A stretch of DNA of 64,000 nucleotides. Source: a virus. Shown here piece after piece: positions 9,340-64,000 of the stretch. Within the stretch, counting starts at the first letter, position 1. Each line of letters opens with the position of its first letter. The DNA lies in the IMG/VR virus record IMGVR_UViG_3300027969_000001, positions 94,715 to 158,714 of that record; one strand, given 5' to 3'. The notes beneath the pieces were generated by a model. It did not search any database. It was not told the origin of the DNA and was given only the letters and a program-made list of their open reading frames with translations. The position numbers and the translations under genes were made by a program.

Positions 9340-9357
9340 AACTACCTCATATATGGC

Positions 9358-9397
9358 AAAAACCCCGCCCACACCGTTCGAAGGTGCAGGCGGGGTT
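9358..9397 (-). terminator. Intrinsic terminator after the capsid gene
   Basis: A stem of AACCCCGCC with GGCGGGGTT, extended inside by GCACC/GGTGT and closed near TTCG, is followed on the minus strand by five T residues. It begins 15 nt past the capsid stop and would strongly separate capsid expression from the oxygenase gene. Confidence 0.9.
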
Positions 9398-9411
9398 CCG
9401 CTTAGTGCTTA

Positions 9412-15124: not shown

Positions 15125-15628
15125 TTATTTTTCCTCTATTTGTTTGAGAATTCTCATGGCAGTCCATGCTTTATTCTTGTCGCTTAATGTCTTGAATGAC
15201 AGATTTCCTATATCAGACTGTACCATCTCGCCACAACATGAATTGGATAGCTGCAAATTGCGTAATTGTTTATTAAGGAATGACTCAACTGCGTCAGATT
15301 TTGACTTAATATTTCTGGCGTTTCTGCCAAGTGATGTATATATTTTTATACCCTCAAGCATGGTTTTGTCTATGTCAATTGTTTTTGTTATAAACGTTTC
15401 ATACCATTTCCCACTAGTCACAGAATGAGGTGAATCCCATAGGGTTCTATGAAATCTTGAAGACCTCATTTTGGTTAAACCGGAAACCTTTGATGTAAAT
15501 GCAAAAAAATCTACACTTACGGTTCCTCCGTCTTGCTTCTCCACGACTCCATCATCACCGTCTGGGCCGGCATCAAGCACATAGAACAATTTGTCCCCAT
15601 GTATTGAGCCGACCAATACTGCCCTCAT
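15125..15628 (-). CDS. Hypothetical protein, 167 aa
   Basis: An unknown protein starting with a strand-rich block (RAVLVGSIHGDKLFYVLDAG). It is followed by a patterned central segment with RSSRFHRTLWDSPHSVTSG and KWYETFITKTIDIDK, then a helical C-terminus. A CC pair is present at NSCCGEM. The start overlaps the giant gene's stop as ATGA, so it is translationally coupled to the 2645-residue protein and may act with it. No catalytic motif is recognised. Confidence 0.7.
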   Translation of the reverse strand: MRAVLVGSIHGDKLFYVLDAGPDGDDGVVEKQDGGTVSVDFFAFTSKVSGLTKMRSSRFHRTLWDSPHSVTSGKWYETFITKTIDIDKTMLEGIKIYTSLGRNARNIKSKSDAVESFLNKQLRNLQLSNSCCGEMVQSDIGNLSFKTLSDKNKAWTAMRILKQIEEK

Positions 15629-18600: not shown

Positions 18601-21600
18601 AGAGTCGTGTCCAGTAGTTCGACCATTCGTCTGCGGCATGTCTTCACGAGCTATACCTATGTGTCCAGAGCAAAGAAGGTTATTCTCTGGGTTATAAAGC
18701 ATACATAGGTCTGCCTGATGTTTTTCTTTGTATTGACGCTTTGCCTCGGCAATCATTTCAGGACTTTTTAAATCTTCGTCAGAGTTAATTTTTTCAAATT
18801 CTGATTTAAATTTAAGCCATTCGGGGTGTTCGTTTTCAATTTGATTGGCTGCTTCTTGCTTAACAAGTTCTTCAAATTGTTTTTGAGCTTGCTCAGTAAG
18901 TCTTACATCTTCATGTTTTACCATCACATGATGACCTGCCATCATTAGCGCAAGAGCGTCCTCGACTTTATCTACTTCATATAGGTGTGAAGATTTTTCA
19001 CTTACAGACTTTTGACCAGACCTTCTGACGGTTCCACCAAAAAACGATGACAGCTCTTCTTCGGACATGGTTTCAATATCTTTGCCATTATCGGCTATTT
19101 TTTTAAAAGTTTCCAAAGCAGATTCAGCAATAGCTTTTTCTTTTTTCCCTCTTTCGGCTACCTGTTCAGCGGAGTCGGAGACACCAGAACTGAGTCTCCC
19201 AGCTCTTGCTGCTGGGTCCATACCGGCAAGTCTTTCAACTCTTCTACTACCACTAGAAACCTGAGGACCTACGCTGGATGCCCGCATGGTGCCGTCGGCA
19301 AGGAACTTTTCTAGGTCAGGTTCACGCATTCTCACCCTGACTCTTCTGTCAAATCCGTTATGCATCTGAAAGGCAGCGGTTTCCAGGTCTGAAATTATTT
19401 GCTCGTGAGACTGGGTCGAAAGTTTTTTAACAACAGCACTATCAAGTGATGAAATAGATAGCGCTTCGTGCTCGCCTGAACCAGAACCGGATATCACCTT
19501 ACGAAGTTCTACCGAACGGTCTTTTATTCTTCCGTTTCTTTGTGTAGTTCTTGCTTCCCGGGTCATTGCTGGTCCGAATACGTCGGAGTGGCCAGAAGAA
19601 AGTTTTCTAGCAACTTCCGACGCAGGACGGCCTCCTCTTTCTGCTGAAGTTTTACTTATAGATTCTAAATATGTTGGAAGCTCTGTTGGGGCTTCGCCAA
19701 ATACTCCACCCTTATCGACTACGTCAGAAAGAACTGTCCTGCTTGTTTCTTTAACAGAATCCGCATCGTCAGAGCGTGAGCCAGGAAGAGGGGAATCGTG
19801 TCTGGTTACTGCGTAGTTGTCTGCAAAGGTTTTAAGCTTTCTTGAAGCACCTTTACGCCATGCAGCATCATCAGTGCCCGATGCTATCGATGTAGCCATC
19901 GAATCAAGGACTTCAACGGTTCCTTTTTGCTCGGCAATTTCTATGCGAATAGTTCCGTCAGCTTCTCTTCCAACAATTCTAATTTTTCCTGGAGGCATAA
20001 CGACAGTTTGGTCTCCACTATCTCCAATATTGGGAAATATTCCCCTGTCTTTTGCTTTAGCAACAATAACTACGCGCTGTTTTACTTTTCCTGTTTCTTC
20101 ATTTATCTTGGTAGCTTCATCAATAACAGTTTTTTTCTGACCTTTAGAAATCACTCGGCCACTTAATAGTCCGTCGTTTTCTATCTCCCTACCTATGGAA
20201 ACTCCCGTGAAAATAGTAGGGTCAAATTCCATTACTGTTTCTATATCTAGCTGCTCTCCAAGTGAGGAAACTTCCATTGCCTCAAGTGTGGGAACTAGTA
20301 TGTTTTTGATTTGGTCATCGAAAGAAGCTTCACTACTAGATTTATCATCTATTGGAAGTGCAAGACGTTTTAATCGAGCATTTTTTCTGTTTGCAGCCCT
20401 ACCTACGGATATTTGCTTAGATGGCTCTAGCGCACCAGCTAACCCATCAGTATCGAATGTGCCCATCTCTTTAACGGCATCAGATTGTTCTTTTGTTATT
20501 TTTCTACGGAGCCGTGCTCTTTGCTTTTTACCCATATCTCGAGCTTCGGTAGCTGATGCTACTTTCCGTGATGCTCGTGGCTTAGGCGAAAGTACAGTTT
20601 CAACTTTCCCATCAAGCTCCATCAGGATTTGCGCAGTGGTTCTCTTATCGCCGGCGTCTTTTATAGATTTTGCATACTGGTTTCTGAGAAGGTCAAGTTC
20701 CTCTGCTTTATCCATGAGGTCTTTGTCTAGTGCTGCAATATCGACAACAGTTAATTCACCATCTGGAACGGTTTCTACGTCGGCTGGAACATAGGAAGCA
20801 ATTGAATTTTCTATATCTTTAATCAGTAATGAATGGTCAGCTATCTTGCGAACTAATTCTTTTTCTGACATCGAAGAAGCAAGTCCCTTTAGGTCATCAA
20901 GAGCTGCGGCCCTAGAAGCGGCCTCTATCTCTTCTGGAGCATAAAGACCGTGAGCATCTCTAACTTCTTTTACTCTCTCTTCAAATCTAGCCAACTCAGT
21001 TTTTGAACCAACGCCATGTTCTTTTCGCCATATTTTTTTGGCGTCTTCATACATTTTGTCGTAAAATTCAAATTCTTTTTGTGCAGAATCAAAAGCGGGA
21101 GAAGTTATGTCATCTATAGAATCCATTTTTGCTGAAGCATTATCACGCTGTGCTGCAACTAGTGCTGCGTTGTTTATCATGTCTTCTTCTGGGAGCTCCT
21201 TAAAAGCTTCACTGAAAGACTTAAGGGCTGCGCGTCGTTCTTCTGAGGTTCTTTCTCCAACTGAAATCAACTCTTCCGCCATGTCTTCCGCGGGCATATC
21301 CGGAACAGCGTCTCCAGATACGTCTGGAATAAAATCTCCACCAGCATCACCGCTTGGAATAATTGAAGAAACTATGGCTCTATCTTCAGCTGCCGCCCTC
21401 ATGGAGACATTGTCCATCCATTCAAGTGCTGCATCAATATCTTCGCCGTAAATTATTCCCTGTTCACGAAGCGCCCAAAGCTCTGCGCATACTTCTAGGG
21501 CCCAGTGCTCTCCGCCTTTTCTGTACACATCCCCTGGGTAGCTACCAGCAAGAGCTGATACAACTTCAATTCTGCTTAATGCTCCATTAAGTGCTTCAAT

Positions 21601-23562: not shown

Positions 23563-23576
23563 GCCGGGGTCCCTTT

Positions 23577-25277
23577 TTAAAATTCGTCGTCGAGAGTGTC
23601 TTCGAGCAACTGGAACTCGACAAGTGCTGCCATGAATTCTGCTTCATTGAGTGAGTCGCCCTTCTCTTCCGTACCAGCTAGCCAGCTTGCTGGCACAAGA
23701 CTCTCAAGCTTGAGAGCGCGAGCGCGCTTCATGATGTGCTTCTTGGTCGCGTCTTTGTCTTTTGCTCGCCCAAATGCCTGAATAGCATTACGGAGGTCTG
23801 ACTCTTTAACGATTGGGTAAGAACCGTCAGGCATTGCTTCGCCTGTTTTGGCTAAGTCAAAACGTCTTGTCTCTGAAAAAGCTCTCTTGAGTGCGATTTC
23901 GGCTGCTTCTGCTTCAATTGAAGCAGCTTCATCCTGTTCATATTTGTCGTAACCCAAAATTTCTCCATCTAGTGCAACGAAAACGTCGTATGACTTCCCG
24001 TCGAATCCTTCAATCTCTACTGCGTAGGAATCAAAGCCTTCGAAAACGTCTGGTTCAACAGCAACAACATGACCGTCAATTGATTTGACTGCAATTTCAG
24101 CAGCTTCGGTAAAGTCGATTAGTTTGTAACCACCGAAGTCTGATTTTTGCTCAAACTCAGCGTTGTCAAGCTTATGGAAACCCATAACCTCAGCACTTGT
24201 TCCATCAATGAATACTTCTTTAACAGAACCATCTTTTGTCTGAACATCAACTACGAACATGTCAGCATCAGATGAGTAACCAGAATCGATAACGACCCCG
24301 TTAAACATCTTCTCTGCAAGACCTTCTACGTGAAGAATTCCTGGCATTCCCTTTTCCGCAACACAACCGCCTGGGCAGTCATCACAAACCGGAGTTGAGC
24401 TATTATAGCCCTTGCGCTCTAGGGCACAAACGTAACCCTTGGTTCCCATTTCTGCTTCATCAATTCCCATTGATTTAATTCTCATAGAACGAATTTCTTC
24501 CCACTCTGGGTCGTTGGCAGAGAATGACTTTTCAGCCATCATGTCGTCTTCTTCGTCATCCACTTCTTCGCCAGTTTCAGGCATTTGAAGTTTTTTCTTC
24601 TTGAGTGGCATGCCGTTTTCATCTTCTTCTTCTTCATCTATGCCGCCGTCGAGAGCATCTTCTGCGTCAGCCATGCCCTTCTTCTTAATAGGCATACCGT
24701 TTTCGTCTTCTTCGATTTCTTCGTCAGCTGGACCATCCGCTACATAAGCTGGGTCGACAACAAGGTTAGGGGTACCCTTCATGGCTCCGGTCTGACGTAC
24801 TGGGACTCGAGGCTTTCCCGAATCATTATCTCCATCATCCATGGTTGCATCAATCGGGTCACCAACGGTGTCTTCGTAATCGTCGTCCATTCGGTCATCT
24901 TCGCCGTAAGGGACTGTTTCTGCATCTGCAGGAATCGGTTCTTCGTCGTCTTCTGGTTTTGGTTCAAGCTTCATGTCCTCTTCAGGCATATCGTCTTCCA
25001 TGACAGGATTGCCTTCGGCGTCGAGAATAGGGTTACCGTTTTGGTCAAGCTTTGGCTTTTTCTTTGGAGCAGTAGCTCCAGCCATTGGCTGTTCTGGGAC
25101 AATGGATGCTGCAGGCTCTGCTGGGACCATCTTCATTTCCATCGGCATTGCTCCGCACTTAGCGCACAAATCTGCGCCCTTTTCAAAACCGCACTCACTT
25201 ACAGCAAGCGCTTTTGCGCATTTAAGCACGTTTCCATCACTGTCAATGTTGACGGTAGCCTTTTCATCGTAGCTCAT
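23577..25277 (-). CDS. Acidic PepSY-domain protein, possible scaffold
   Basis: A 566-residue protein with three parts. Residues 1-50 carry Cys pairs (KCAKAL, LCAKCGAM). Residues 60-260 are extremely acidic and repetitive, with DENGMPIKKK and DENGMPLKKKK as direct repeats, likely disordered. The C-terminal half has another Cys cluster (CDDCPGGC), two alpha/beta units including AAEIAVKSIDGHVVAVEP...VALDGEILGYDKYE, which reads as a PepSY-like fold, and a final GEAMPDGSYPI...DLRNAIQAFGRAKD...KRARAL domain. From memory the last is a phage domain of unknown function (DUF6582) often seen in head proteins. AGGAG lies 8 nt before ATG. Between portal/protease and capsid, an acidic abundant protein fits a scaffold, but this is inferred. 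Confidence 0.75.
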   Translation of the reverse strand: MSYDEKATVNIDSDGNVLKCAKALAVSECGFEKGADLCAKCGAMPMEMKMVPAEPAASIVPEQPMAGATAPKKKPKLDQNGNPILDAEGNPVMEDDMPEEDMKLEPKPEDDEEPIPADAETVPYGEDDRMDDDYEDTVGDPIDATMDDGDNDSGKPRVPVRQTGAMKGTPNLVVDPAYVADGPADEEIEEDENGMPIKKKGMADAEDALDGGIDEEEEDENGMPLKKKKLQMPETGEEVDDEEDDMMAEKSFSANDPEWEEIRSMRIKSMGIDEAEMGTKGYVCALERKGYNSSTPVCDDCPGGCVAEKGMPGILHVEGLAEKMFNGVVIDSGYSSDADMFVVDVQTKDGSVKEVFIDGTSAEVMGFHKLDNAEFEQKSDFGGYKLIDFTEAAEIAVKSIDGHVVAVEPDVFEGFDSYAVEIEGFDGKSYDVFVALDGEILGYDKYEQDEAASIEAEAAEIALKRAFSETRRFDLAKTGEAMPDGSYPIVKESDLRNAIQAFGRAKDKDATKKHIMKRARALKLESLVPASWLAGTEEKGDSLNEAEFMAALVEFQLLEDTLDDEF

Positions 25278-25403: not shown

Positions 25404-28400
25404 CTAAACAGCTGTTGAATCAGAAATTACTCTCGTTCCATTTTTGTTTTTACCGTAAAGAGTTTTTCCATCTTTTTCTATACGCTCTCGCGCTGTACGA
25501 AGTTGTTCCGCACTGAAAATGTCATCTATGGAATAATTTGTTCCAAAAACTTCATTGAATCTATTTACAACACCCTGAAGCTCATTTGTTGAATATCGAG
25601 GGCTGTCGCCCTTCTTCGGAGAAAAAACTGGACCACGTGTAGCAGCCAGTTTAGGCAGCTCAGTATGTATGTCTTTTTTACCGATTATTGAATGAACAGT
25701 CTCTCTATTGGCTTTTGACTTTTCCACGCCACTCTTTTGAATGAATTCATTTAGGGCTTCGTACACAGCATGCTTGGAACGACTCAGCTCGGAATCAAGC
25801 TGTTGACCAGCTTTCCCTTCCGTCCAAATAGAAGAAGCATCAGGTATTACTCCCTTGCGAATCATTTCATCGATATAAGCGACGGGAACGCCTTTCTTTT
25901 CCCATTCAGCAGCATCACGCCTACTTCCAAGACCAACATTCTGACTACCAAAACTTTCAGCAATCACTTGACGGAGTTTTTCGTGCCAGTTATCGTTTTT
26001 GCTAATACCGAGGTGCTCCAGAAGGGGCTCTATTTTGAAATCCTGTCTAGATGTCTTGTCGGTTGCTATCTGCTCAGCAGTGACTGTTCCTGATGGAGTT
26101 AAGGATGCCCCAGACATTCCTTCCAGCATTAAATTATGTTCTGCTTCCGAGTCGCCATCAGTAGCACTATTCTTCTGGAATCGGCCCATTGCCTGAAACT
26201 TGGCAACAGGACTAACTTCCCCAAGAGAAGCGTATTCATCTGGCGTTATTGATTGTTGTTCTTCTTGGTCAAACCAGTGAGGGAATGCGTCTTTACCAAA
26301 AGTCTCAACAATGAATCGGTCTCGCATGCTGGCTCGGCCTATATTCTCGGCAAATACTTCTTCAGCGTTCCACTTTTTCTGCTTTGCTTCCGCCGAATCT
26401 ACTGGGGCAAAAAGCCTCCATGCTCCGAATTCTTTTTGCTTGCCGGTTTCGGCCAACATGTACCTGACTGCGTCATGGTTAATAGCTGCGCCATCTTTTT
26501 CCAACAACGCAGCGTCTCTTCTGCCAAGACCAAGCATGCTTGCTAACTCGGCATTGGTGATTGGACGAGTCTGTGAATGGAAAGACTCAGACAGTGAACC
26601 ACTATCGGTATAATCCCTAGTCCACTCTGTCGGAACACGAATGGCATCCTTGAGCTTGGATACTGGGAGCATCCATGTCTCAGCTGAAGGCTCTTGATTG
26701 CCACCATTTTGAGATATGTTTCCAATCTTAATTGATGGGCGCTCGCGCATTCTTTCAGAAATAGCATTAAGCGCATTATTCAGTGCTTTTTGTTTCTGGG
26801 CAGGGTCTGTTGAGTCGGAGTCAATATCAAGTGCTATGCCATTATCTCTAAAGCCCTTCCATATGCTCATTGATGTTTTTGTGATTGCTCTATTAGTGCC
26901 ACTATTTTTTGTAACGCTAGAGAACCCAGCAAGCTCTATGGGGTGCGCTAAACGTCGGGTGTCGCCTTCTGCACCAGACATGTCCTCGCCGGCATTACCG
27001 ACCGTACGAATACGCCTGGAGAGACGTCCACCAGCATTTGATGAAGCTGCACCACTGCTTAGTTTGGCAACGCTTCCTGAATCGCTTTCAGGGAAGTCAT
27101 TAATCCAGTCTAGTGAACCAAGTTCAAGCTGTTCTTCTGCTCTTGTAACGGCAACATAAGAAAGTCGGAGTTCCTGCTCGTCAGGCATAATCCATGTTTT
27201 CTTCTCTTTGTCCCACTTTGGTTTTCTAAAGTCTGACCAAATTTTTACTCTTGGAGACTCAAGACCCTTAGAGGTATGTGCTGTTTGAATATGCACGTAG
27301 TCGTCGCGATTTTCTGGCAGTTTTTTCTTGTCGGTAATAATCTTGCTGAGTGCTTCACGCAAGTCTGCAACAGAGTTCTCTGCAAGCAGCTTATTAAGCA
27401 TGTTTAATCTGTTGTTATCCCCGTCCTCTATGGCTTTTTTGAATTCTTCCATAGTAGTAATTCCGTCAAGGTCTTGACTTGGAGGTGGAGGAGTCTTGAC
27501 TTCTTTGCCAAATTCGTTGATGTAGAAAGGGTTGCCTTTTGCTTTGTTTTCCATCCAGTCAATGTTTTGGATAAAATTTTCTAAGTCTTTCTTAAAGTTC
27601 TTACTTCCATATACAGCGCCGCCCTTGCTGAAAACATCCATAGTTGCCGCAATGGCTCCACCGTTTGCACGAGTAAGAATCATTGTTGGTTTATCTATAG
27701 TTGTAATTACTCCATCTACAGGATTACCTGACTTGTCTGCTTTCTTTCCGGTCATGCGTTCTTTTGCACCAAGAAGCGATAGGAACTGGTTTCCTACTCC
27801 AGCAATTACTTTTCCAAATCTATAAGAATCTGTAATTGGCATGTCATATACGGATTTTGCATCATCTAAAGTTTTTCCATCAGCCCCTCGCCAGGCGTTG
27901 ATGGCCTGATTGGTATCGCCAATGTAAATTTTTTGAATATCGCCAGAGTTTGCCAGCATCTTTGCAAACACAGGGTTCATATCCTGTGCCTCGTCAACCA
28001 TGGCTATATTGGCTCCGGCTATTTTCCCAATGTCTGGGTCGGTTAGTGCCCATATTTTTGTTAAATGAGCGTTGTTCGTTGGCAACATTCCCTTTTTGCC
28101 ATCACGTGCAGTATTAATGTCTTCCCACATTTTCTTGGCATATCCGACCAACTCGGGAAGTATTTTTTCATCTTTCACTGCTAATGAACCATTGAAGGCA
28201 CCGGTAAAGTGCTGAGGGCCAACTTCCTTATCATCACTGATTACGAAAGCATCAATTGCCTTCTGTACTCTCTTGTAAACATCTATGGCACTGAGTTCAT
28301 CTGCTTCAGAAACCATACCCTTTATACCGAGATATGCGGCTCTATCTTTGTAAGACTTGATTGGGTCTATCCAGTTGACAGCATCAGCCTCGTAGCTTTT

Positions 28401-31400
28401 ATCAGTCAAGTTTCTATTAATTGCCTTCATGGCATTGTAGGAAAGACTGTCCATAGTTCTAATCTGGAAGAAATCTGGAGAGATGCCTTCTTTGGCTATT
28501 CTCTTTGTTACGTCGTCTTTGGCGTTAACGTTAAATACTAAATAAGCAATTCTTGCTTCCGGTTCTGATTTCTGCAGTCTCTTAGCAAAGTTAATAACTG
28601 TTGTTGTTTTACCCGTTGCCGCTAAAGCTCTAACCTTTACGTCTGCTCCAGTCATCATTGCGTCTATAGCAACATCTTGTTCAGGGTTAGGTTTTCTGTT
28701 GGCAGGGAGGTCTGGGTAGTCGTATTTCTCAACGTCTTTTATGTCAATTATTTTTCTAGGTTTTCTAGAGAATGGAGCACTTGGTGTACTTGGCGCACCT
28801 GGGGCATTCGGGGTGGAAGGCTTGGATGGAGTAGCGTCACCATTTGGCCATACGGTTTTGCCGTTTTCAACGGTAGGCCAGCCATAAACCATGTTACGAA
28901 GCGTGTCCCACTGTGACTGACTAAGGACTCCATTTTTACTCTTATGCTGAGAAAGAACACTAGGTAAGAAACTTTCTTCAAAACCCTTTTTGGGAGTTTT
29001 TGCTGCGGCAGCTTCTATTAGTTTTTTCTGCTCTTCTGGATTTGGCATGTCTCCTGGTGGATTTTTGCCAGAAGACAGGCTTTGCGGAGCAGTTACTGTT
29101 GGTGTAAATGTTGATGCTTTAGGAGCTCCACCACCGTACGGATTCCAGTGTCCGTTTGGCCTTTGTTGTTCTGGTCCGAGTTTTGTTGGACCATTGGCAA
29201 TGCCGTCAATACCGGTGTTTCTGGCTGGGTCGAATATCCAATCGAGGCCTGGACCGGGGTCAAAACCTAATTTTGCACGAGTAAGTGCAACATACAGAAG
29301 ATGTGCTTCTTCTCTTGGCAACCTATTGTTAACCTCACCAGCATCTTTCTGTGCTTGAGTGAGTGCAATCCCCATGTCACGAGCATTGGACCTTCCCCAG
29401 TCATCACCCATCATGACGTAGTCGGCTTCAAGGCCTTTTACCCCGTGTCCGGTAATTACTTCAATATCAACGCCTTCAGTGTCGTTTACGTGGTCTGTGA
29501 GGTATCTTCCAAGTTCTGAAACAATAGAAGCACTTTCTTCTAGGGTGTCACCGGAGACAACCCACCCATCGCCAGGCGGGCGCTGCGCCTTCCCGTCTAA
29601 AGCAACACTCTTCTCATGGTAGGATATTTTCCCTTCCATTTTGTGGTCTTTAATCCATTTTTGAAGTGCAAGTCTGCTTGGCCCGAGCGCAGTAGCTTTT
29701 GTGGCTGAGCCGTTCGCGGCCGTGTATGACTTTACTCCGTCAACTCCGTTACCGGTTATGAGAATACTCTTCCCGTCCCATTTGCCTGATGCCGTAACGC
29801 CAGGACCAAGCCACGAACCAGAGTCGGTAAATAATGGTCTCCAGTAAACCCTATTAATATCTGCGTCACCATTAAGAGATGCTGGAATAATTATGTTTGG
29901 CTCAAGGCCGCCCATTATCCACGGGCCATTAGCACCAGCACCAGATTTCTTGGGATTGAGTGCTCCCTGTATTTTTACAGCTTCAATATCAATTTGTTCA
30001 AATGGGTCTATGTCTACCCTTTCTTGAACTGGAATAATTTTTCTCTTAGAATAGTCAAATTCACCTTTTACTGAGTCCCACATGCCCTCTAAGGCTTCTA
30101 CGTAATCCATGGCGCTCATGTTGGCTTGCATTATCGCCCCGGTTTGTGGGTCTCTATATGTAGCCCGTGTTCCGTCTGGGTTCATTTTAGGCAAATCAAG
30201 AAGCCTCATCAACGAGAGCGCGTCAGCATTAGCTTTACCGTCGATAGAAAGTATTCTCTTGACGTCTTGAATACTTGCAGCGTCCATCACTTTTCCACCA
30301 AGAAGCTTTGACTCCACTGGTCTTGCAAGTTTTTTGCCAGAGTTAATCCAATTCAGAACCTTCATTGCGGCAAGCATTTTAGAGTGTCTTTCCTCCGGCA
30401 TGCCAAGCGTCTTACCAAGTCGCGTGCTTATTTCTATACCTTGAGAAATCATTCCCGCATTGGTCCTGAATATAACCATGTTTTTGCCAGGACGGTCAAA
30501 TTTGTAGTCTCTAAGTATTTCTCCGTCAGCCTGAGCAGCAAGAGCCTGCATGGCATCGGTTAATAATTTGTCTCTATCTTTTTCATTAAGTGAGGGAAGC
30601 GCGGAAAGACTTACAATGTTTTCATCCAGACGATTGTTTCTTTTTTGTATGTCGACCCATCGAGCGTCGTACTTCTTGGCAAGTTTTTGAAATTTTTTAG
30701 TAAGTTCATCTTTGGATAGTCCAGCAATACTGAAGTCGGCTTCGACTACACCAGCAGCTCTACCAAACAATTGGTAATCGGAAGCTTCTGGGTCTACGCC
30801 ATCGTTTCTGTCCTCGATATTCAGCATGTTAAGAATCGAGTTACCTAAGTATGCTTGTAATCTTCCGTATCTAAAAGAGTCACGAAGGGTTAGTTCAAAT
30901 GTTGGTTTTACTTGAGCAAAAGTATCTGATGAACCTCTAAACCCAAAGATTGACTGACGTGGGTCACCAACCATCATTATGCTGACGCCTTTTTCGGCAT
31001 TGTCGGCAATTACTTGCTGAACTACCTGGTTAGTGTCTTGTGCCTCGTCGAACATGAACAGGCTCAACGGTTTGTCTTTTGTTCCAAACTGGCGGTACCA
31101 CGTTGCACCTGTCTTGTTGTGTGTAACAATGCCTGTCTTGCCTTTGACGGCTCTTGTTCCGGATGGGGTGGCTTTTGGAAAACCCTGCTGGTCCCTGCTG
31201 GCGTGACCAATCAAACCTGGGTCTGTTGATAGGTCAGGCTTGGTTAATGCCCACATTTTTACTTGATGGTCAAAAGTTGGAAGAACGTTTGAATTATCGT
31301 CCGTAATGTCTTTCCACATCTGTTCCAACTGCTTAACCCAAGCATCTGGAACAGGCTGGGTCCACACGCGGTCTACTACAGGACTTAGGGTGGTGCTGCC

Positions 31401-34400
31401 TCCATTTAGAACCATGTTCTGTATGTCAAAAGCAGAATGTTCAAAGTGTTTTGCACTTATGGTCTCGTCGCCGCTTATGCAGAACCTGCTAAGAGCATTG
31501 TTGAGGATTGCTCCGTATTGAAGTGCGCTTATTTGCGTGGCATCAAACATCTGACTACCCAAGGGAAGTGCGCCACCATTGTTGCTTCCGCCATATTTGA
31601 TTTCGTCTAATTTGTATTTTTCGACAACAGCTTTAGAGCCCTCTATTTTGTCAAAAGCGGTATACCCAAGCGTTCTGTACCCAACAGACTTAACACCTAC
31701 TAAATCCACAGTAGTTCCATCAAATCTTGTGATGGTTTTTTTAACGGTTGCCTGTTTATGGGTTTTACCCCAGTACGAATTGCCTCCGCCACTTGCACCA
31801 ATTGAAACTTTTTCGGCAGTTTTTGGGCCGAACATTTTATTTCCGGTGCCAAACTTGAGTGACCAATACGCCAATTGATTAATTGTTGAAGAACCAGTAT
31901 TTTCTGGCATTCTTCCGTTTGCTTCTTGCGCGTTTTTTCTGGCAAAAGTAATGTAATAAACTCCTGCTTCTGGGTCTTCTAGTTGAACAGCTTTAGAGAC
32001 TGCTTCCAGGGTTGTCGTTTTGCCAGTTCCGGCACCCGCTCTTACTGCAGCTATCCCACCCGGTTGCTCCAAGAAATGAACTCCGGTGTCAATGATTGCA
32101 ACTTGTTCTTCAGTTGGCGTGTAGTTGAGGCCTAGGCGCTCGCGAGCGCTTTCCGCGTCGCTTCTCTTGACTATTCTCTTATCGTCAAACTTGCTTACAA
32201 TCGGCTTCAGGTCAGCGCCGCTGCTTAGCTTACGATAAGACTGGTCGTATCTATTGCCGTCTTTGTCTTTAATTAAGAATCCAGGGATTCCTGCAAGGTC
32301 TTCTCCAAAGAGTCCTGATGACATTGCACCAACAACGCCTCTTCTCTTTCCTCCTGCAGGAACTCTAAATGGAGCCTGTGGAGAAAGTGGTTTTTTCTCG
32401 CCTTTCTTTGGTGGGCCGAGCTTGACTGTAACGTTTCTGGCAGTGTTTGTTCCAGGAACCGTGAAGGTAAAGTCTTGACGACCTTTTCTTTCGTCGTCTC
32501 TTTTACCAGCAAGTCTACGAAGCGTTGGCGACTTGTTCATCATGTAGTCGATGGCCTGCTGTGCCTGTGTTAACGCATCTTGAAGTGCGTTTGGGTTATC
32601 GCGAATGGCTTGCATCCAGCCGGAAACGTACTGAGCGTGGTCTTCTCTGACTGTCGGCTCAAGGCCAAGGATTCCCATGGCGAAAGCGCTACCAATTTCA
32701 GCAATTAGTTCTTCAAATGCGTACCTAGATTTAGATTCGGCTCCAGCTCCTCGCATTCTTCCTGTTTGGTCTCTATTGAGGCGAGATGGGTGGCCGGTCC
32801 AGTGGGTTGTTTCGTGAAGCAGTGTTGAGTAGAAACCTATTGGGTCCTTAAAAGAAGAGAACGTGGGCATTGTAATAGAGTCATTGGAAGGTGAATAAAA
32901 TGCTCGGCCTTGTTTTGCCTCTTTCCAATCCGGTCCTATTTCTGAAATAACGTCTTCAATGTCTTTCATTCTCTTCGCTGCGTCAAGTTCGTCATGCGAG
33001 ATTGGTTTATAGAACTCCTCCGGCAAGCCTTTTACTTCAGCAACGTTAATAACTTCAGTAATGTGAAACGTTCCTGTTGGGCGACCGTTGTATAAAGTTG
33101 GTGCAATTATCTGTACGAGCTTATTCTCATATCCCGGTTCTAGTTCTCCGCCAGCTTTCTTCCATTGAGCCACCCCAGCCCAACGTGGAATCTCGTACCC
33201 ACGATGCGATGCAACCTGCATGAGAAGGAATTGGTTTGTTCCTTCATATGTTCTTTTGGTATTTGGATTAGTAGCAAAAAACATTGCTCTTCTCCAAGGA
33301 AATTCCCATGTTGAATTAGGGTCATTTTGTACTTTTTCAAGAGAAGCTAAAAAGTCTTTAGCCATCAAGTCGTACATTTCCTTAAGGGAACTTTCATCTA
33401 GTTCTTGACCTGATGAAAGTTTTGCTAGCGGACCATCGTACTTAAATCTGTCTTCGTCAGACCTGTTCTTGGGACTTGTTTTGAGATAAAACTTATAGTC
33501 GTTAGAAAGGTCTTTTCCAGGAATGCTGAATTTCTTATCTGGATTTGGTGATTTAGGAGCTGAAATTTTTGCTACAGAGTCGCCGACTTCGTTCTCTAGT
33601 TTTTGAACTGGTTTTTTAGCACTCGGAACACGGTCTTTTGGCTTGACGTCGGGGGCCCCAATAGGCTTCAATGCGTTCTGGATTCCTATGAAACGAGGAT
33701 TGGTTGAACCTTCGTCTACCCAGCCGTCATTGTCGGGGTCAAAGGTACTGAATGTGGGTTTTCTGTATCCGCGAACGCCACCAGTAGGGATGTCGATATC
33801 CGTGCTTCTATTTCTACGGTTGTCGCCAAGATGACGGTCACCAAGGGTTGGTCTGTCTATGAGACGAGAACCAATCGCCCTTCCTAAACGAAAGCCTGCG
33901 GCCTTTGTTTCGGGGTCAAACTCAATTAAAGATTTTTTTTTTAGGTTATTGAGTGCAGTGTCTACTGCATCTATGAGTTCCAGGGTTACTCCGGATGTGA
34001 GAACGATGCCTTCCGTATCAACAAAAGACTCAACTCTGTGATAATCAAAAATTGGGTCAAGAGCTTGTTTTACTTTAAATGCATGCTCTACGACTACCGG
34101 AATGTAATACGGCTTATCATCGTATGAATCACCGAGACTAAACTCGGCGAGGCTTTTGTACTTGCGACGGGAGAGGAATTTATTCTCAATTGCCCCACGG
34201 AGTGAAACAACAGCCAAATCTTCTGGGTACTTAACTTCTATGTCTGTTAAATACTCGACTTCTGAATTGAGTTCATCTAGTCTGTACGACTTCATGACAG
34301 ACGGACCGGCATTAACCACGCCAGGAGGAATTACGGCGAATCGACACTTTCCTTCACTCTCAACAGCCATGTCAATAATCTTGCATTTTCCTTCACCTTG

Positions 34401-35513
34401 GAAGAATACGCAGTTTGAGCATTTGACGCCTATTCTAGCAATTTCGTTTTCTATGGCCGGCGTATATCCAGCCCACACACCTTCGGAGTCTTCATTGAAC
34501 TTTCCGTGGCGAGCTACAATCTTTAGCAAAGCGTCTCTAAGGTCCGCTTCTTCTTTATCGAGGTTTCCAGGAGTTTGCTGACCCATGTTGCTGTTGCCTG
34601 TATTCGCGTACTCAACTCGTGGAAGAGCAATAACAGCCATTCCCTCGCTAGTTGGCTTAAACGCCATCGGTACCGATGCTGCTGGTGGGCGCATGGGAAC
34701 CGTTGGAGCCTGAACTCGTGGAGTCGGCATAGACATTGGCATAGCCATTGGGGCACCGAACATGAAGCGGCCGTTGTTGTGCATGAATGGGCACTTGTAC
34801 TTTTCATTTTGACCGTTTTCGCCTACATGTCCATACATGACATGATTATCTGCAACGTCAGTCACGGAAACTTTTTTGCCGAGCATCATCGAGAGTTGCT
34901 TCTCTAGTTCCTCTACGTCCATACCATCAGTAACAGGAGTACTCATCTGTGGGTTCTCCATGATTGCAGACTGACCGTCAGACTTGACAGAGATGGTCCC
35001 CGTGAGTTGGTTTGCGCCATGCAATACAGGGCTTACTTCATAGAGTTCAAGCTCGTAAATAACGTTTGCTTGAGCCTTTTGGTCATACTGAGCGCGGAGG
35101 GTTTTGTAGCCAATTGACCACTCCTGCTCTTGACCAAAGAAGGCTACGTTTGAGAACGCCTCTTTGCCTTTTTCTGAAAAAAGATTGAACTGAACGCGAG
35201 CAAAAAGTCCACCAATACCAGCCATCTTCATTTTCATTGGAAGACGATTGTCGGTTGGCGGTACTTCGTAAATTTCTAGAACCTTACCGATAGGGTCGTT
35301 CCAGTTATGTCCCCAAACAACACGCGGCTTTCTGCGCATAAGGCTCTTGGTAAATGCTCCAGTTGCACAAATGTCACCAACAGAGTCTCTATTACCAATG
35401 CCTGCCACAAAGCACTCAACGATTCCCTGCGCTTCATCTAGGTTTAGCGAGCCATTTGCTGCTGCTGTAGAACCTAGTGATGCTGCTTTGTATTCAAACA
35501 TTTCTAAAGGCAT
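25404..35513 (-). CDS. Giant fusion: prohead protease, ArdC antirestriction zincin and two SF1 helicases
   Basis: A 3369-residue protein. Residues 1-190 are an HK97-type (assemblin fold) prohead protease: VVWGHNW (His69), EWSIGY (Ser133) and ELELYEVSPVLHGAN. A Cys cluster (365-390) and an EF-hand-like FDPDNDGWVDEG (about 590-603) follow. After LSSG 699 comes an ArdC-type unit: ssDNA-binding WEFPWRRAMFF...YEGTNQFLLM and zincin HETTHWTGH (900-908). After SSG motifs at 1064 and 1096 comes SF1 helicase 1 (Walker A GAGTGKTTT, Lys1165; DEAQD 1489; GDPRQSIFGFRG; VALTRAK). After LSSG 2146 comes helicase 2 (ATGKTTT, Lys2302; DEAQD 2507; GDTNQAINAWRG; TSKGLESP; VAVTRAE). After LSSG 2818 follow about 550 residues of unknown function. 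The frame is unbroken. The gene sits just after the portal, the normal protease position. Confidence 0.93.
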   Translation of the reverse strand: MPLEMFEYKAASLGSTAAANGSLNLDEAQGIVECFVAGIGNRDSVGDICATGAFTKSLMRRKPRVVWGHNWNDPIGKVLEIYEVPPTDNRLPMKMKMAGIGGLFARVQFNLFSEKGKEAFSNVAFFGQEQEWSIGYKTLRAQYDQKAQANVIYELELYEVSPVLHGANQLTGTISVKSDGQSAIMENPQMSTPVTDGMDVEELEKQLSMMLGKKVSVTDVADNHVMYGHVGENGQNEKYKCPFMHNNGRFMFGAPMAMPMSMPTPRVQAPTVPMRPPAASVPMAFKPTSEGMAVIALPRVEYANTGNSNMGQQTPGNLDKEEADLRDALLKIVARHGKFNEDSEGVWAGYTPAIENEIARIGVKCSNCVFFQGEGKCKIIDMAVESEGKCRFAVIPPGVVNAGPSVMKSYRLDELNSEVEYLTDIEVKYPEDLAVVSLRGAIENKFLSRRKYKSLAEFSLGDSYDDKPYYIPVVVEHAFKVKQALDPIFDYHRVESFVDTEGIVLTSGVTLELIDAVDTALNNLKKKSLIEFDPETKAAGFRLGRAIGSRLIDRPTLGDRHLGDNRRNRSTDIDIPTGGVRGYRKPTFSTFDPDNDGWVDEGSTNPRFIGIQNALKPIGAPDVKPKDRVPSAKKPVQKLENEVGDSVAKISAPKSPNPDKKFSIPGKDLSNDYKFYLKTSPKNRSDEDRFKYDGPLAKLSSGQELDESSLKEMYDLMAKDFLASLEKVQNDPNSTWEFPWRRAMFFATNPNTKRTYEGTNQFLLMQVASHRGYEIPRWAGVAQWKKAGGELEPGYENKLVQIIAPTLYNGRPTGTFHITEVINVAEVKGLPEEFYKPISHDELDAAKRMKDIEDVISEIGPDWKEAKQGRAFYSPSNDSITMPTFSSFKDPIGFYSTLLHETTHWTGHPSRLNRDQTGRMRGAGAESKSRYAFEELIAEIGSAFAMGILGLEPTVREDHAQYVSGWMQAIRDNPNALQDALTQAQQAIDYMMNKSPTLRRLAGKRDDERKGRQDFTFTVPGTNTARNVTVKLGPPKKGEKKPLSPQAPFRVPAGGKRRGVVGAMSSGLFGEDLAGIPGFLIKDKDGNRYDQSYRKLSSGADLKPIVSKFDDKRIVKRSDAESARERLGLNYTPTEEQVAIIDTGVHFLEQPGGIAAVRAGAGTGKTTTLEAVSKAVQLEDPEAGVYYITFARKNAQEANGRMPENTGSSTINQLAYWSLKFGTGNKMFGPKTAEKVSIGASGGGNSYWGKTHKQATVKKTITRFDGTTVDLVGVKSVGYRTLGYTAFDKIEGSKAVVEKYKLDEIKYGGSNNGGALPLGSQMFDATQISALQYGAILNNALSRFCISGDETISAKHFEHSAFDIQNMVLNGGSTTLSPVVDRVWTQPVPDAWVKQLEQMWKDITDDNSNVLPTFDHQVKMWALTKPDLSTDPGLIGHASRDQQGFPKATPSGTRAVKGKTGIVTHNKTGATWYRQFGTKDKPLSLFMFDEAQDTNQVVQQVIADNAEKGVSIMMVGDPRQSIFGFRGSSDTFAQVKPTFELTLRDSFRYGRLQAYLGNSILNMLNIEDRNDGVDPEASDYQLFGRAAGVVEADFSIAGLSKDELTKKFQKLAKKYDARWVDIQKRNNRLDENIVSLSALPSLNEKDRDKLLTDAMQALAAQADGEILRDYKFDRPGKNMVIFRTNAGMISQGIEISTRLGKTLGMPEERHSKMLAAMKVLNWINSGKKLARPVESKLLGGKVMDAASIQDVKRILSIDGKANADALSLMRLLDLPKMNPDGTRATYRDPQTGAIMQANMSAMDYVEALEGMWDSVKGEFDYSKRKIIPVQERVDIDPFEQIDIEAVKIQGALNPKKSGAGANGPWIMGGLEPNIIIPASLNGDADINRVYWRPLFTDSGSWLGPGVTASGKWDGKSILITGNGVDGVKSYTAANGSATKATALGPSRLALQKWIKDHKMEGKISYHEKSVALDGKAQRPPGDGWVVSGDTLEESASIVSELGRYLTDHVNDTEGVDIEVITGHGVKGLEADYVMMGDDWGRSNARDMGIALTQAQKDAGEVNNRLPREEAHLLYVALTRAKLGFDPGPGLDWIFDPARNTGIDGIANGPTKLGPEQQRPNGHWNPYGGGAPKASTFTPTVTAPQSLSSGKNPPGDMPNPEEQKKLIEAAAAKTPKKGFEESFLPSVLSQHKSKNGVLSQSQWDTLRNMVYGWPTVENGKTVWPNGDATPSKPSTPNAPGAPSTPSAPFSRKPRKIIDIKDVEKYDYPDLPANRKPNPEQDVAIDAMMTGADVKVRALAATGKTTTVINFAKRLQKSEPEARIAYLVFNVNAKDDVTKRIAKEGISPDFFQIRTMDSLSYNAMKAINRNLTDKSYEADAVNWIDPIKSYKDRAAYLGIKGMVSEADELSAIDVYKRVQKAIDAFVISDDKEVGPQHFTGAFNGSLAVKDEKILPELVGYAKKMWEDINTARDGKKGMLPTNNAHLTKIWALTDPDIGKIAGANIAMVDEAQDMNPVFAKMLANSGDIQKIYIGDTNQAINAWRGADGKTLDDAKSVYDMPITDSYRFGKVIAGVGNQFLSLLGAKERMTGKKADKSGNPVDGVITTIDKPTMILTRANGGAIAATMDVFSKGGAVYGSKNFKKDLENFIQNIDWMENKAKGNPFYINEFGKEVKTPPPPSQDLDGITTMEEFKKAIEDGDNNRLNMLNKLLAENSVADLREALSKIITDKKKLPENRDDYVHIQTAHTSKGLESPRVKIWSDFRKPKWDKEKKTWIMPDEQELRLSYVAVTRAEEQLELGSLDWINDFPESDSGSVAKLSSGAASSNAGGRLSRRIRTVGNAGEDMSGAEGDTRRLAHPIELAGFSSVTKNSGTNRAITKTSMSIWKGFRDNGIALDIDSDSTDPAQKQKALNNALNAISERMRERPSIKIGNISQNGGNQEPSAETWMLPVSKLKDAIRVPTEWTRDYTDSGSLSESFHSQTRPITNAELASMLGLGRRDAALLEKDGAAINHDAVRYMLAETGKQKEFGAWRLFAPVDSAEAKQKKWNAEEVFAENIGRASMRDRFIVETFGKDAFPHWFDQEEQQSITPDEYASLGEVSPVAKFQAMGRFQKNSATDGDSEAEHNLMLEGMSGASLTPSGTVTAEQIATDKTSRQDFKIEPLLEHLGISKNDNWHEKLRQVIAESFGSQNVGLGSRRDAAEWEKKGVPVAYIDEMIRKGVIPDASSIWTEGKAGQQLDSELSRSKHAVYEALNEFIQKSGVEKSKANRETVHSIIGKKDIHTELPKLAATRGPVFSPKKGDSPRYSTNELQGVVNRFNEVFGTNYSIDDIFSAEQLRTARERIEKDGKTLYGKNKNGTRVISDSTAV
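27051..27062 (-). other. LSSG motif, giant fusion residues 2818-2821
   Basis: AK-LSSG-AASS context, at the end of helicase 2 and before the C-terminal segment. Putative processing site. Confidence 0.5.
29067..29078 (-). other. LSSG motif, giant fusion residues 2146-2149
   Basis: QS-LSSG-KNPP context, in the linker between the two helicases. Putative processing site. Confidence 0.5.
32217..32228 (-). other. LSSG motif, giant fusion residues 1096-1099
   Basis: RK-LSSG-ADLK context, immediately ahead of helicase 1. Putative processing site. Confidence 0.5.
32313..32324 (-). other. MSSG motif, giant fusion residues 1064-1067
   Basis: GA-MSSG-LFGED context, after the ArdC unit. It lies 32 residues before the next motif, so two cuts would free a short linker. 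Confidence 0.4.
33408..33419 (-). other. LSSG motif, giant fusion residues 699-702
   Basis: AK-LSSG-QELD context, directly before the ArdC N-terminal helix. Putative processing site separating the protease segment. Confidence 0.5.
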
Positions 35514-35617: not shown

Positions 35618-37681
35618 CTAAGCTACTTGAGCAAAGTTCCAAACATCCCTTGCGCCTGTTTCGGCTATTTCAAACTGTTCTTTAGCAAAGAAGTTTGCAT
35701 ACATATCAATCAAACCCTCCCTGAAGGAGAGGAGGCGTCTATCTTCTTCGGCAAACTCAAAAGACTTGAGCATTATGGAGTTGATGTCAGAGAAGAATAC
35801 GTCATTAACCTTTTTGATTCTAAGCAAATGTGACTCAATATTCTTGACAACGTCAAACGGCTGAAGAGTTTTAATCTTCATACCGTATTCGTTTGACTTC
35901 TCGCTTCTTAATTCGTATGAGTCATTAATAATTGCAGATAATACGGGTTTAATGTCGTCATCAATCTGCTTATTCCATATATCTTTTGAGAGAATTGAAT
36001 CTATGTCCAAAGTTCCAGACATAAGAGACTTTCTAGCCTTTGCCCCACTGGCCTTCTCAAGAACAACTCTTTGCTGTCTTTCGACAATACGTTCAATGCT
36101 TCTAGAAAGTATGTCCGTCCAGCGCTCAATTGCAGTCTCAGACCTATCTTCGGCTGTCGTTTCGTCACTCTTTGTTTGAATCTGAGTGTTTGAGTCAGAA
36201 GCCGTAACCATCCCAGGCATCGCCTCAGGAGCAAGCGCTTCTGGCGGAACAGTGTCTTGAGGCATTCCTTCAACTTGTCCTGCTGCTGCAAGGGCTCCCT
36301 GCATCGTATTGGGGTCAAGTGGCGGTGTTGCCCCCACTGGAGGCATTCCTGGTACTGGGGGTATTCCTGGAGCGCCTGGTGGCATTCCTGGCATTCCTGG
36401 CATTCCTGGAGCGCCTGGAATCTGTGCCGTATTTGGTTCTTCCATCTTCTTCTTAGTATTGGCAATTGGAATGAGGTTGGGGTTCATCAAAAGGGAGTCA
36501 GCCAAATCGGCTTCTACTTCTTTTCGTGAAGAACCTATTCTGTATTCGTTGTTGCTAATTAGACCTGCTTGGAATTCCTGCATCAGGTAGCGGTCGCGCT
36601 CTTGCTTGTAGAGCATCAAAATTGGGACACCGGTGGTATCAAAGTCAACGTAGTTCTTATCATCTAGTTCATCCAAAGCACGGGCGATTGGCTCCAAATG
36701 CGGAAGCATTGTCTCCATCCAGAATACCCTGATTTCCTCAGCAGCGTTACTAAACGTACGTCCTGCAGCATTTCCTATTACCGACTCCGGAACACCAAAA
36801 GCAGCAAGTATTTCCTCTTTGGTAACTTGGCGCATCTGAATATAGGCAGCATCTCTTGGGCTAGCCGAAGTGTCAACGAAGTCAACACCATCATCGGCCG
36901 AAATAACGGTCGTATGGCCGGCGCGTGTTATGTTTCCACGGAATCGACTACGGAGCTCCTCCTTGTCTTCTTCATCAATTTCTCCACGAAGGACAAGCAA
37001 TCCACCGGGACGACCATCATTAAGCAGGTAGTTGCGGTTGTAGAGCTTTGCCAAGTTCTCAATTTCTATCGCCACGCCAGATGCCTCAAGTGGAGTTAGG
37101 GACAGGTATGGGTCAAGAGGGTGCGGGCGACGAACCCAACAAACATCATCCGGCTTCATGATTACTTTTTGACCATTTGGCATGCTTACTTCGTAACCAG
37201 AAACAAAGGTCTTGGGGTCGGGAATTGGGGCAGTTGACTGAGGTGGGAGTAGGTTTAGTCCAATTATCCCACCATCACGACCACGCACTTTTTCGATAAA
37301 AGCACCCCGTGTACCAAGGAGAAGCTGAGCGGAAAGCCTGTATCTAAAAATAAATGAGTTTTCCCCAACATTGGACTTGACGTTTAGGAGTTCCAGCAAT
37401 GTTGAGCGGTTCGCCTCGCGGCCAACTATTATCTCACCCTTGCTGGAGTTGTCTTTGCGGAGTATGGCCGGTAGACGTGCCTGGTTTCCAGCGATAGCAT
37501 CAATGCACCGGTTAACCCAGGTAATTTTTGACATGCCTTCGCGGTAAGCACGCTCGATATCCCACGAGTCCCTGTATGGCTTACCCTCAAAAGAGGGGTT
37601 ATTTGAGATAGGTATTCCATACCCCAACCCCTTCGACCCCGATGACTGAACTGATTTATTCTCTGACGAGTTCCATCCCAT
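35618..37681 (-). CDS. Portal protein, HK97 family, with collagen-like insert
   Basis: A 687-residue portal, the dodecameric ring through which DNA is packaged and ejected. The core has the family landmarks: KITWVNRCIDAIAGNQARLP, LLLGTRGAFIEKVRG, DDVCWVRRPHPLDPYLSLTPL, NYLLNDGRPGGLLVLRG, VTKEEILAAFGVPESVIG and ERDRYLMQEFQAGLIS. After the core, around residues 410-440, is a Pro/Gly/Met tract of collagen-like triplets (GAPGMPGMPGMPPGAPGIPP). A helical C-terminal extension of about 200 residues follows, longer than in standard portals. It lies between a small membrane-protein gene and the protease fusion. The order portal, protease, (scaffold), capsid is that of HK97-type head operons even though the terminase is on the other strand. 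Confidence 0.96.
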   Translation of the reverse strand: MGWNSSENKSVQSSGSKGLGYGIPISNNPSFEGKPYRDSWDIERAYREGMSKITWVNRCIDAIAGNQARLPAILRKDNSSKGEIIVGREANRSTLLELLNVKSNVGENSFIFRYRLSAQLLLGTRGAFIEKVRGRDGGIIGLNLLPPQSTAPIPDPKTFVSGYEVSMPNGQKVIMKPDDVCWVRRPHPLDPYLSLTPLEASGVAIEIENLAKLYNRNYLLNDGRPGGLLVLRGEIDEEDKEELRSRFRGNITRAGHTTVISADDGVDFVDTSASPRDAAYIQMRQVTKEEILAAFGVPESVIGNAAGRTFSNAAEEIRVFWMETMLPHLEPIARALDELDDKNYVDFDTTGVPILMLYKQERDRYLMQEFQAGLISNNEYRIGSSRKEVEADLADSLLMNPNLIPIANTKKKMEEPNTAQIPGAPGMPGMPGMPPGAPGIPPVPGMPPVGATPPLDPNTMQGALAAAGQVEGMPQDTVPPEALAPEAMPGMVTASDSNTQIQTKSDETTAEDRSETAIERWTDILSRSIERIVERQQRVVLEKASGAKARKSLMSGTLDIDSILSKDIWNKQIDDDIKPVLSAIINDSYELRSEKSNEYGMKIKTLQPFDVVKNIESHLLRIKKVNDVFFSDINSIMLKSFEFAEEDRRLLSFREGLIDMYANFFAKEQFEIAETGARDVWNFAQVA

Positions 37682-61091: not shown

Positions 61092-64000
<2,909 letters not shown>

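What the first reader, a model, noticed from the sequence alone, without database searches (positions are those of the whole stretch)
25404..35513. Prohead protease fused to ArdC antirestriction zincin and two SF1 helicases in one 3369-residue protein
Seen: HK97-type protease motifs (His69, Ser133), then HETTHWTGH in an ArdC context, then two complete sets of SF1 helicase motifs, all in one unbroken frame located right after the portal. Known: prohead proteases are normally 150-250 residue stand-alone proteins; ArdC-type proteins block restriction after DNA entry; UvrD/Rep helicases unwind DNA. Inference: fusion to the protease targets these enzymes into the prohead so they can be released and delivered with the genome. 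This would be a packaged anti-defence and takeover kit.
Basis: partly seen in the sequence, partly recalled or inferred. Interest (0 to 1): 0.95.

Follow-up and report, generated by a model that had tools for sequence, protein, structure and literature searches.

The report
Likely self-cutting phage enzyme polyprotein
A large uncultured bacterial virus strings its capsid-maturation protease, an anti-restriction protein and two helicases into one giant chain, with a short repeated sequence at nearly every junction that looks like the protease's own cutting site, so a DNA phage seems to build and load a set of takeover proteins the way RNA viruses use polyproteins.

Summary
In detail: one unbroken 3369-aa minus-strand ORF just downstream of the portal gene joins an S78 prohead protease, a complete ArdC (ArdcN + zincin), two UvrD-type helicases and a conserved C-terminal module. 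It is not an assembly artefact: more than 20 divergent relatives carry the same fusion.
The new result is a recurring tetrapeptide, [LFM]SSG, between the modules. This virus has 22 copies in four large proteins (0.7 expected), including a 4250-aa protein with 11. In 23 distinct relatives there are 134 copies (about 3 expected) and none inside an aligned domain. Codons vary, so the signal is at protein level. Two other lineages use a different motif at the same kind of boundary: G[FLM]AS, or ISGRM. Motif type follows the protease tree, and homologous modules carry the motif of the lineage they sit in. The best reading is a polyprotein cut by its own prohead protease into packaged, probably injected, enzymes. 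Cleavage, packaging and injection are inferred, not shown. The class is known (polyvalent proteins, Iyer 2017); the repeated, lineage-specific site coupled to an N-terminal prohead protease appears undescribed in the papers I could search.

The parts
25404..35513 (-). Giant ORF P0001, 3369 aa: prohead protease - ArdC - helicase 1 - helicase 2 - C-terminal module, with five [LFM]SSG motifs
34989..35423 (-). Peptidase_S78 (HK97-type prohead protease) domain, aa 31-175; conserved His69, Ser133
   Evidence: Pfam PF04586 E 3e-8; PHROG head maturation protease; alignment with cultured phages
33681..33911 (-). 77-aa element (aa 535-611, ...PTGGVRGYRKPTFSTFDPDNDGWVDEGSTNPRFIGI) shared at 70% identity with aa 24-96 of the 4250-aa giant outside the window; candidate capsid-targeting element
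   Evidence: also in relatives
33408..33419 (-). Boundary motif LSSG at aa 699 (before ArdC)
33123..33380 (-). ArdcN domain, aa 712-797
   Evidence: PF08401 E 9e-13
32574..32960 (-). MPTase-PolyVal zincin, aa 852-980, HETTH at 900; with ArdcN a full-length ArdC
   Evidence: PF18818 E 6e-35; PDB 6sna/6i89 E 3e-36
32313..32324 (-). Boundary motif MSSG at aa 1064 (after ArdC)
   Evidence: low-confidence stretch in the model
32217..32228 (-). Boundary motif LSSG at aa 1096 (before helicase 1)
29259..32126 (-). SF1 (UvrD-like) helicase 1, aa about 1130-2085
   Evidence: Pfam AAA_19/AAA_30/UvrD_C_2
29067..29078 (-). Boundary motif LSSG at aa 2146 (between the two helicases)
27114..28745 (-). SF1 (UvrD-like) helicase 2, aa about 2257-2800
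   Evidence: PF00580 E 6.5e-27; phrog_1967
27051..27062 (-). Boundary motif LSSG at aa 2818 (before C-terminal module)
25407..26966 (-). Conserved C-terminal module of unknown fold, aa 2850-3369 (35-49% identical in 13 relatives)
   Evidence: model pLDDT 77.7, no significant PDB or BFVD match
15625..23562 (-). Second giant, P0002, 2645 aa, four [LFM]SSG motifs in its C-terminal half (aa 1321, 1457, 2029, 2303 = 19591-19602, 19183-19194, 17467-17478, 16645-16656)
   Evidence: relatives upstream of MCP carry the motif too
23577..25277 (-). 566-aa acidic protein between the two giants, no motif; possible scaffold (inference)
35618..37681 (-). Portal protein, 687 aa
   Evidence: PF04860 E 6.5e-50
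9412..10761 (-). Major capsid protein, 449 aa; QLSSREIKSIGQMF near the presumed delta-domain/N-arm junction
   Evidence: phrog_10 E 6.5e-58; alignment
54696..59585 (+). 1629-aa protein, probably tape measure (by size and position), with two [LFM]SSG motifs (54801-54812 and 56421-56432)

Best explanation
P0001 is a phage polyprotein. The N-terminal S78 prohead protease (shown by homology) recognises a short motif, [LFM]SSG in this lineage, that lies between the modules (motif and its placement shown). It probably cuts there in cis and in trans, in P0001, P0002, the 4250-aa protein and possibly the tape measure (inferred). This would happen in or around the prohead and release a free protease, an ArdC, two helicases and further enzymes inside the capsid. 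These would then be ejected with the DNA to block restriction and take over the cell (inferred from polyvalent-protein and T4/SPN3US precedents). In two related lineages the same modules carry another motif, G[FLM]AS or [IV]SGRM, because the protease's specificity has drifted and its substrates have followed (association shown, causation inferred).
For: (1) [LFM]SSG occurs 22 times in this virus's four giant proteins against 0.65 after shuffling (max 3 of 300 shuffles), and once in the other 37,754 aa; in 23 distinct relatives 134 against 3.3. Among the 12 permutations of L,S,S,G, LSSG has 121 and the next 9. It is the most enriched 4-mer when searched without bias. (2) None of the 134 motifs lies in an aligned domain although domains cover 43% of residues; they bracket ArdC, the helicase region and the C-terminal module. 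(3) 21 different codon strings for 22 motifs: selection on protein, not DNA. (4) Three lineages, three largely exclusive motifs: 134/0/4, 1/47/0, 2/2/23. (5) S78 domains of LSSG viruses form one clade (100/93), GFAS viruses another (98/81); group labels fit the tree with 5 changes against 14.4 shuffled. (6) Homologous modules carry the lineage's own motif at matching borders: ArdC at 699/1064 here and GFAS 1049/1377 in G011; the exonuclease at 870/1162 in the 4250-aa protein and ISGRM 787/1071 in G005, 796/1080 in G006. (7) G010, G012 and G013 protease polyproteins with 5-9 motifs contain no HExxH, so S78 is the only peptidase recognised in all fused polyproteins. (8) Precedent: the prohead protease of SPN3US cuts several head and ejection proteins at one AXE motif (PMC7411985, PMC10052503).
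Against: No cleavage, virion or infection data exist; no close isolate is known (best phage S78 matches about 40%). The motif is short and the exact cut position unknown. The capsid protein junction has LSSR/LTSR, and LTSRE also occurs in ISGRM-type viruses (G004), so the capsid substrate does not clearly follow the rule. Protease and motif share a history, so covariation could be common descent. Another protease (a zincin) or a docking role for the motif is not excluded. One of three sites examined by AlphaFold is in a confidently predicted loop, not a disordered linker.
Confidence: 0.72

Rival explanations
1. The chain is processed, but by the zincin (MPTase-PolyVal) domains, as Iyer et al. 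proposed for polyvalent proteins; the prohead protease only matures the capsid.
For: All 23 distinct LSSG-lineage polyproteins have an HExxH zincin; Iyer et al. suggest autoproteolytic release by MPTase (PMC5512222).
Against: G010, G012 and G013 polyproteins have 5-9 motifs and no HExxH in the protein itself, though a neighbouring protein has one. Motif type tracks S78 clades. The solved ArdC homologue is a free-standing protein.
Confidence: 0.12
2. The motif is a docking or packaging signal, for example binding scaffold or portal, and the giant is delivered uncut, like N4 virion RNA polymerase.
For: Short conserved motifs in linkers can be docking sites; N4 virion RNAP is packaged unprocessed (PMC5512222).
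Against: A docking signal need not sit on both sides of nearly every module, nor be repeated 16 times in one chain (G011). A prohead protease in the same chain makes cleavage the simpler reading.
Confidence: 0.1
3. The motifs are neutral linkers or scars of module shuffling with no recognition role.
For: They lie between modules, and modules do move between proteins.
Against: Order-specific (LSSG 121 versus 9 for the next permutation), 21 codon spellings of 22, and lineage-wide change of all copies.
Confidence: 0.04
4. The segments are made from internal translation starts, not by cleavage.
For: One motif is MSSG, with AGGAGG about 30 nt upstream.
Against: The other four P0001 motifs have no start codon at the motif and no suitably spaced Shine-Dalgarno sequence; codon spelling is free.
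Confidence: 0.02

Closest known systems
Phage polyvalent proteins (Iyer et al. 2017, PMC5512222)
   Same: Large multidomain protein in the head gene region with ArdcN, MPTase-PolyVal zincin and helicases; proposed packaging, injection and release by embedded peptidases; the authors drew the analogy with polyproteins.
   Different: They found assemblin-like peptidases limited in distribution and always C-terminal; here the prohead protease is N-terminal and general in the clade. They describe UvrD helicases in a few actinomycete plasmid-type proteins. I found no repeated boundary motif described there.
SPN3US / T4-type prohead protease processing of ejection proteins (PMC7411985, PMC10052503)
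   Same: One prohead protease cuts many head proteins, including ejected ones, at a short shared motif; propeptides are thought to target cargo to the core.
   Different: Separate protease gene of the T4 gp21 type, mostly one N-terminal propeptide per substrate, motif AXE; not a chain of enzymes.
Stand-alone S78 proteases of Gordonia phage Gray, Brevibacterium phage Cantare, Streptomyces phage Gilgamesh
   Same: Best cultured relatives by S78 (37-42%) and portal (38-44%); between portal and protease lie cargo-like genes (ADP-ribosyltransferase, RNA ligase, large hypothetical proteins).
   Different: Protease of 417-641 aa, not fused to cargo, no LSSG repeats.
RNA-virus polyproteins
   Same: Works like: several enzymes in one chain with an embedded protease and a repeated site.
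   Different: No homology claimed; dsDNA tailed phage, with several other giant substrates apparently cut in trans.

Membership tests
Polyvalent proteins | Multiple conflict-type domains incl. ArdcN and MPTase-PolyVal in one chain | tested here: met
Polyvalent proteins | Encoded among virion genes of a portal/terminase phage | tested here: met
   portal upstream, MCP downstream; terminase not tested by profile
Polyvalent proteins | Delivered to the host with the genome | not testable with these tools
   needs virion proteomics
S78 prohead protease | S78 profile match with catalytic His and Ser | tested here: met
   PF04586 above cut-off; H69 and S133 conserved; no PDB sequence match
S78 prohead protease | Cuts the MCP delta domain and acts in the prohead | not testable with these tools
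   MCP junction QLSSREIKSIG suggestive only
Viral polyprotein (works like) | Embedded protease | tested here: met
Viral polyprotein (works like) | Repeated short site at module borders | tested here: met
   motif and placement shown; that it is the cut site is inferred
Viral polyprotein (works like) | Mature products found after cleavage | not testable with these tools
   no isolate, no proteomics
ArdC anti-restriction protein | ArdcN plus zincin with HExxH over full length | tested here: met

The most novel reading that the evidence does not exclude
A dsDNA phage clade has a true polyprotein strategy: a prohead protease fused to, and cutting, an interchangeable chain of packaged effector enzymes at a repeated site, with at least three protease/site specificities (LSSG, G[FLM]AS, ISGRM) and modules that acquire the recipient's site when they move between proteins and lineages.
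Probability: 0.65. Interest if true: 0.92.

Novelty: new variant of a known kind. Interest (0 to 1): 0.86.

Why it matters
If true, it shows how a phage makes, loads and separates many takeover proteins from few genes, gives a sequence rule that marks module borders (and so finds new anti-defence effectors, most without Pfam names) in hundreds of uncultured viral contigs, and supplies naturally diverged protease/site pairs for testing how capsid proteases choose substrates.

Tried and rejected
Assembly artefact: rejected (L008 and many relatives; three other contigs, L007, L014 and L018, show single frameshifts after which the next frame continues the protein). Internal starts: no start/SD at four of five motifs. 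DNA-level repeat or recombination site: rejected by codon diversity. Generic Ser/Gly linker: rejected by the permutation control. MCP junction as proof of specificity: dropped, because QLTSRE also occurs with ISGRM-type cargo and LSSR never occurs in the 23 polyproteins. C-terminal module fold: no significant PDB or viral match. Pfam/NCBIfam on most modules of P0002 and the 4250-aa protein: mostly nothing above cut-off except exonuclease and DUF3626. Host by genome contigs: only MAG contigs of mixed labels (Gammaproteobacteria, Phycisphaerae, Acidimicrobiia), inconclusive. Near-DNA search of cultured phages: no match. Literature searches for a prohead-protease polyprotein or LSSG: only the polyvalent paper and SPN3US-type work; subscription papers and preprints are not covered. 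Herpesvirus assemblin's hydrophobic-x-Ala|Ser rule, recalled from memory, suggests LS|SG, FA|SR and IS|GR; the paper checked did not state the consensus, so this is only a lead.

Full report
WHAT IS THERE. The window lies at 94715-158714 of a 158,714-base IMG/VR viral contig. On the minus strand, 105 nt after the portal gene, one ORF of 3369 aa runs from 35513 to 25404 without a stop. Its order is S78 prohead protease, a long region with a 77-aa element, ArdcN plus MPTase-PolyVal zincin (a full ArdC, matching PDB 6sna/6i89), helicase 1, helicase 2, and a C-terminal module without a recognised fold. Then follow a 566-aa acidic protein, a 2645-aa giant and, further down, the major capsid protein. 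A third giant of 4250 aa lies at G000 79459-92211 on the same strand.

THE KEY OBSERVATION. Each recognised domain of P0001 beyond the protease is set off by the tetrapeptide [LFM]SSG, often preceded by K or R, at aa 699, 1064, 1096, 2146 and 2818. The 2645-aa protein has four, the 4250-aa protein eleven, the probable tape measure two; only one more occurs among 197 longest-ORF gene calls (a simple caller, not a curated annotation). In the four giants 22 are seen against 0.65 expected by shuffling. The codons are almost never the same twice (21 spellings of 22), so the constraint acts on the protein.

RELATIVES. 565 viral stretches encode a relative of the protease; 80 were read. After removing near-copies, 23 polyproteins of 2242 aa or more remain (some cut by contig ends; one is the window virus itself). 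They contain 134 motifs against 3.3 expected; LSSG occurs 121 times, its best permutation 9. ArdC is kept at 39-50% identity and the helicases at 22-46%, while the S78 domain is at 82-94%, yet none of the 134 motifs falls inside an aligned domain although domains cover 43% of residues. The proteins are related, so these are not 134 independent events. Flanks of the motif are poor in order-promoting residues (0.23 against 0.30). In the AlphaFold model of the ArdC region the motifs at 1064 and 1096 lie in low-confidence stretches and that at 699 in a well-predicted loop between a conserved helical peptide and the ArdC body.

THREE LINEAGES, THREE MOTIFS. Viruses with more distant capsid proteins showed other repeated strings. 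I then fetched their protease regions, which mostly do not overlap the stretches in which the strings were noticed. In G010-G013 the protease is again fused (1938-4905 aa) and the repeated string is G[FLM]AS; in G004-G006 the protease is unfused (785-896 aa) and neighbouring large proteins carry [IV]SG[RK]M. Counts of the three motifs in the three groups are 134/0/4, 1/47/0 and 2/2/23, about one expected by chance in the smaller groups, and each lineage's motif heads an unbiased 4-mer ranking. A MAG contig fetched later has a 2698-aa protease polyprotein with four G[LFM]AS. The S78 tree puts all LSSG rows in one clade (100/93) and all G[FLM]AS rows in another (98/81), joined as a fused clade (95/86), with the unfused ISGRM viruses outside it. 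The simplest history is fusion of an originally separate protease onto its cargo, together with change of specificity.

MODULES WITH THE LOCAL LABEL. The ArdC module between LSSG 699 and MSSG 1064 aligns with G011 1053-1373, which lies between GFAS 1049 and 1377. The exonuclease module (870-1161 of the 4250-aa protein) aligns with G005 799-1069 between ISGRM 787 and 1071, and G006 808-1076 between 796 and 1080. The last zincin module (3955-4250) aligns with G010 1468-1751 right after GLAS 1459, in a different host protein. In G011 a DUF2958 domain (1626-1709) lies between motifs at about 1602 and 1726. Same module, same border, different label: this is what a protease-recognition site would do, and what a passive linker would not.

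HOW IT PROBABLY WORKS. Shown: domain order, motif, placement, protein-level constraint, lineage association. Inferred: the S78 protease cuts at the motif; cutting happens in the prohead; the freed enzymes travel with the DNA. Established precedents are T4 internal proteins and Alt, and SPN3US ejection proteins cut by prohead protease at AXE (PMC7411985, PMC10052503), and phage P1 DdrB and DarA processing (PMC5512222). The 77-aa element shared by P0001 and the 4250-aa protein shortly before the first motif would suit a targeting propeptide that is cut off, like the T4 capsid-targeting sequence; that is inference. ArdC would counter restriction, the helicases may act on incoming or host DNA, and the 4250-aa protein adds a DEDD exonuclease, DUF3626, two HExxH zincins and, by eye and weak hits, ADP-ribosyltransferase-like and GNAT-like modules.

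STATUS AGAINST KNOWN SYSTEMS. By domains and context it is a phage polyvalent protein. It departs from the published description in having the assemblin-like/prohead protease at the N-terminus as a clade-wide feature, in the repeated border motif, and in the lineage-specific motif classes. No paper in the searchable library describes this; papers outside it may. I therefore call it a new variant of a known kind, with the polyprotein mechanism as the novel claim.

Noticed in passing
L002:4744-17496 minus (G000 79459-92211), outside the window: 4250-aa protein with 11 [LM]SSG motifs giving 12 modules: DEDD exonuclease, DUF3626, two HExxH zincins, GNAT-like and ADP-ribosyltransferase-like segments; most modules have no Pfam family.
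   Followed up: partly
window 12405-14588 and 15625-23562: A 727-aa head-region protein shares a weak Cys-containing element (34% over 91 aa, E 0.008) with aa 201-285 of the 2645-aa giant; possibly a second targeting element.
   Followed up: no
P0001 aa 673-694 (window about 33432-33497): A conserved 22-aa peptide (Y..YL.KP..KR[TS]..E..K.DG) precedes ArdC in 15 of the 23 distinct polyproteins (regular-expression hit), often between two motifs, and is found nowhere else in this virus.
   Followed up: partly
window 62849-64000 and G000 20811-23603, 18268-19533, 15597-17501, 8852-10240: Collagen-like G-x-T/G-P-T-G repeat proteins, probably tail fibres, share long repeat blocks, suggesting recombination among fibre genes.
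   Followed up: no
window 4540-5169/5147-5722 and 42957-43646/43658-44359: Two adjacent pairs of paralogous genes (33% and 35% identity), the first pair overlapping.
   Followed up: no
L169:4764-18638 (Streptomyces phage Gilgamesh gp48): A cultured distant relative has a 4624-aa hypothetical protein between portal and protease, without LSSG repeats; a cultivable model for giant cargo proteins.
   Followed up: partly
L202:556-15270: G011 protease polyprotein of 4905 aa has ArdC, DUF2958 and five KTSC domains with about 16 G[LFM]AS motifs.
   Followed up: partly
P0001 aa 1130-2800: Most relatives appear to have a single helicase region; the window virus has two, separated by a motif, as if a helicase module was added with its own border. 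G016 also shows a second helicase region.
   Followed up: partly
L014, L018, L007: Protease-polyprotein ORFs broken by single frameshifts (at about aa 536, 548 and 2981); the next frame continues the protein. Assembly error, programmed frameshift or decay not distinguished.
   Followed up: partly
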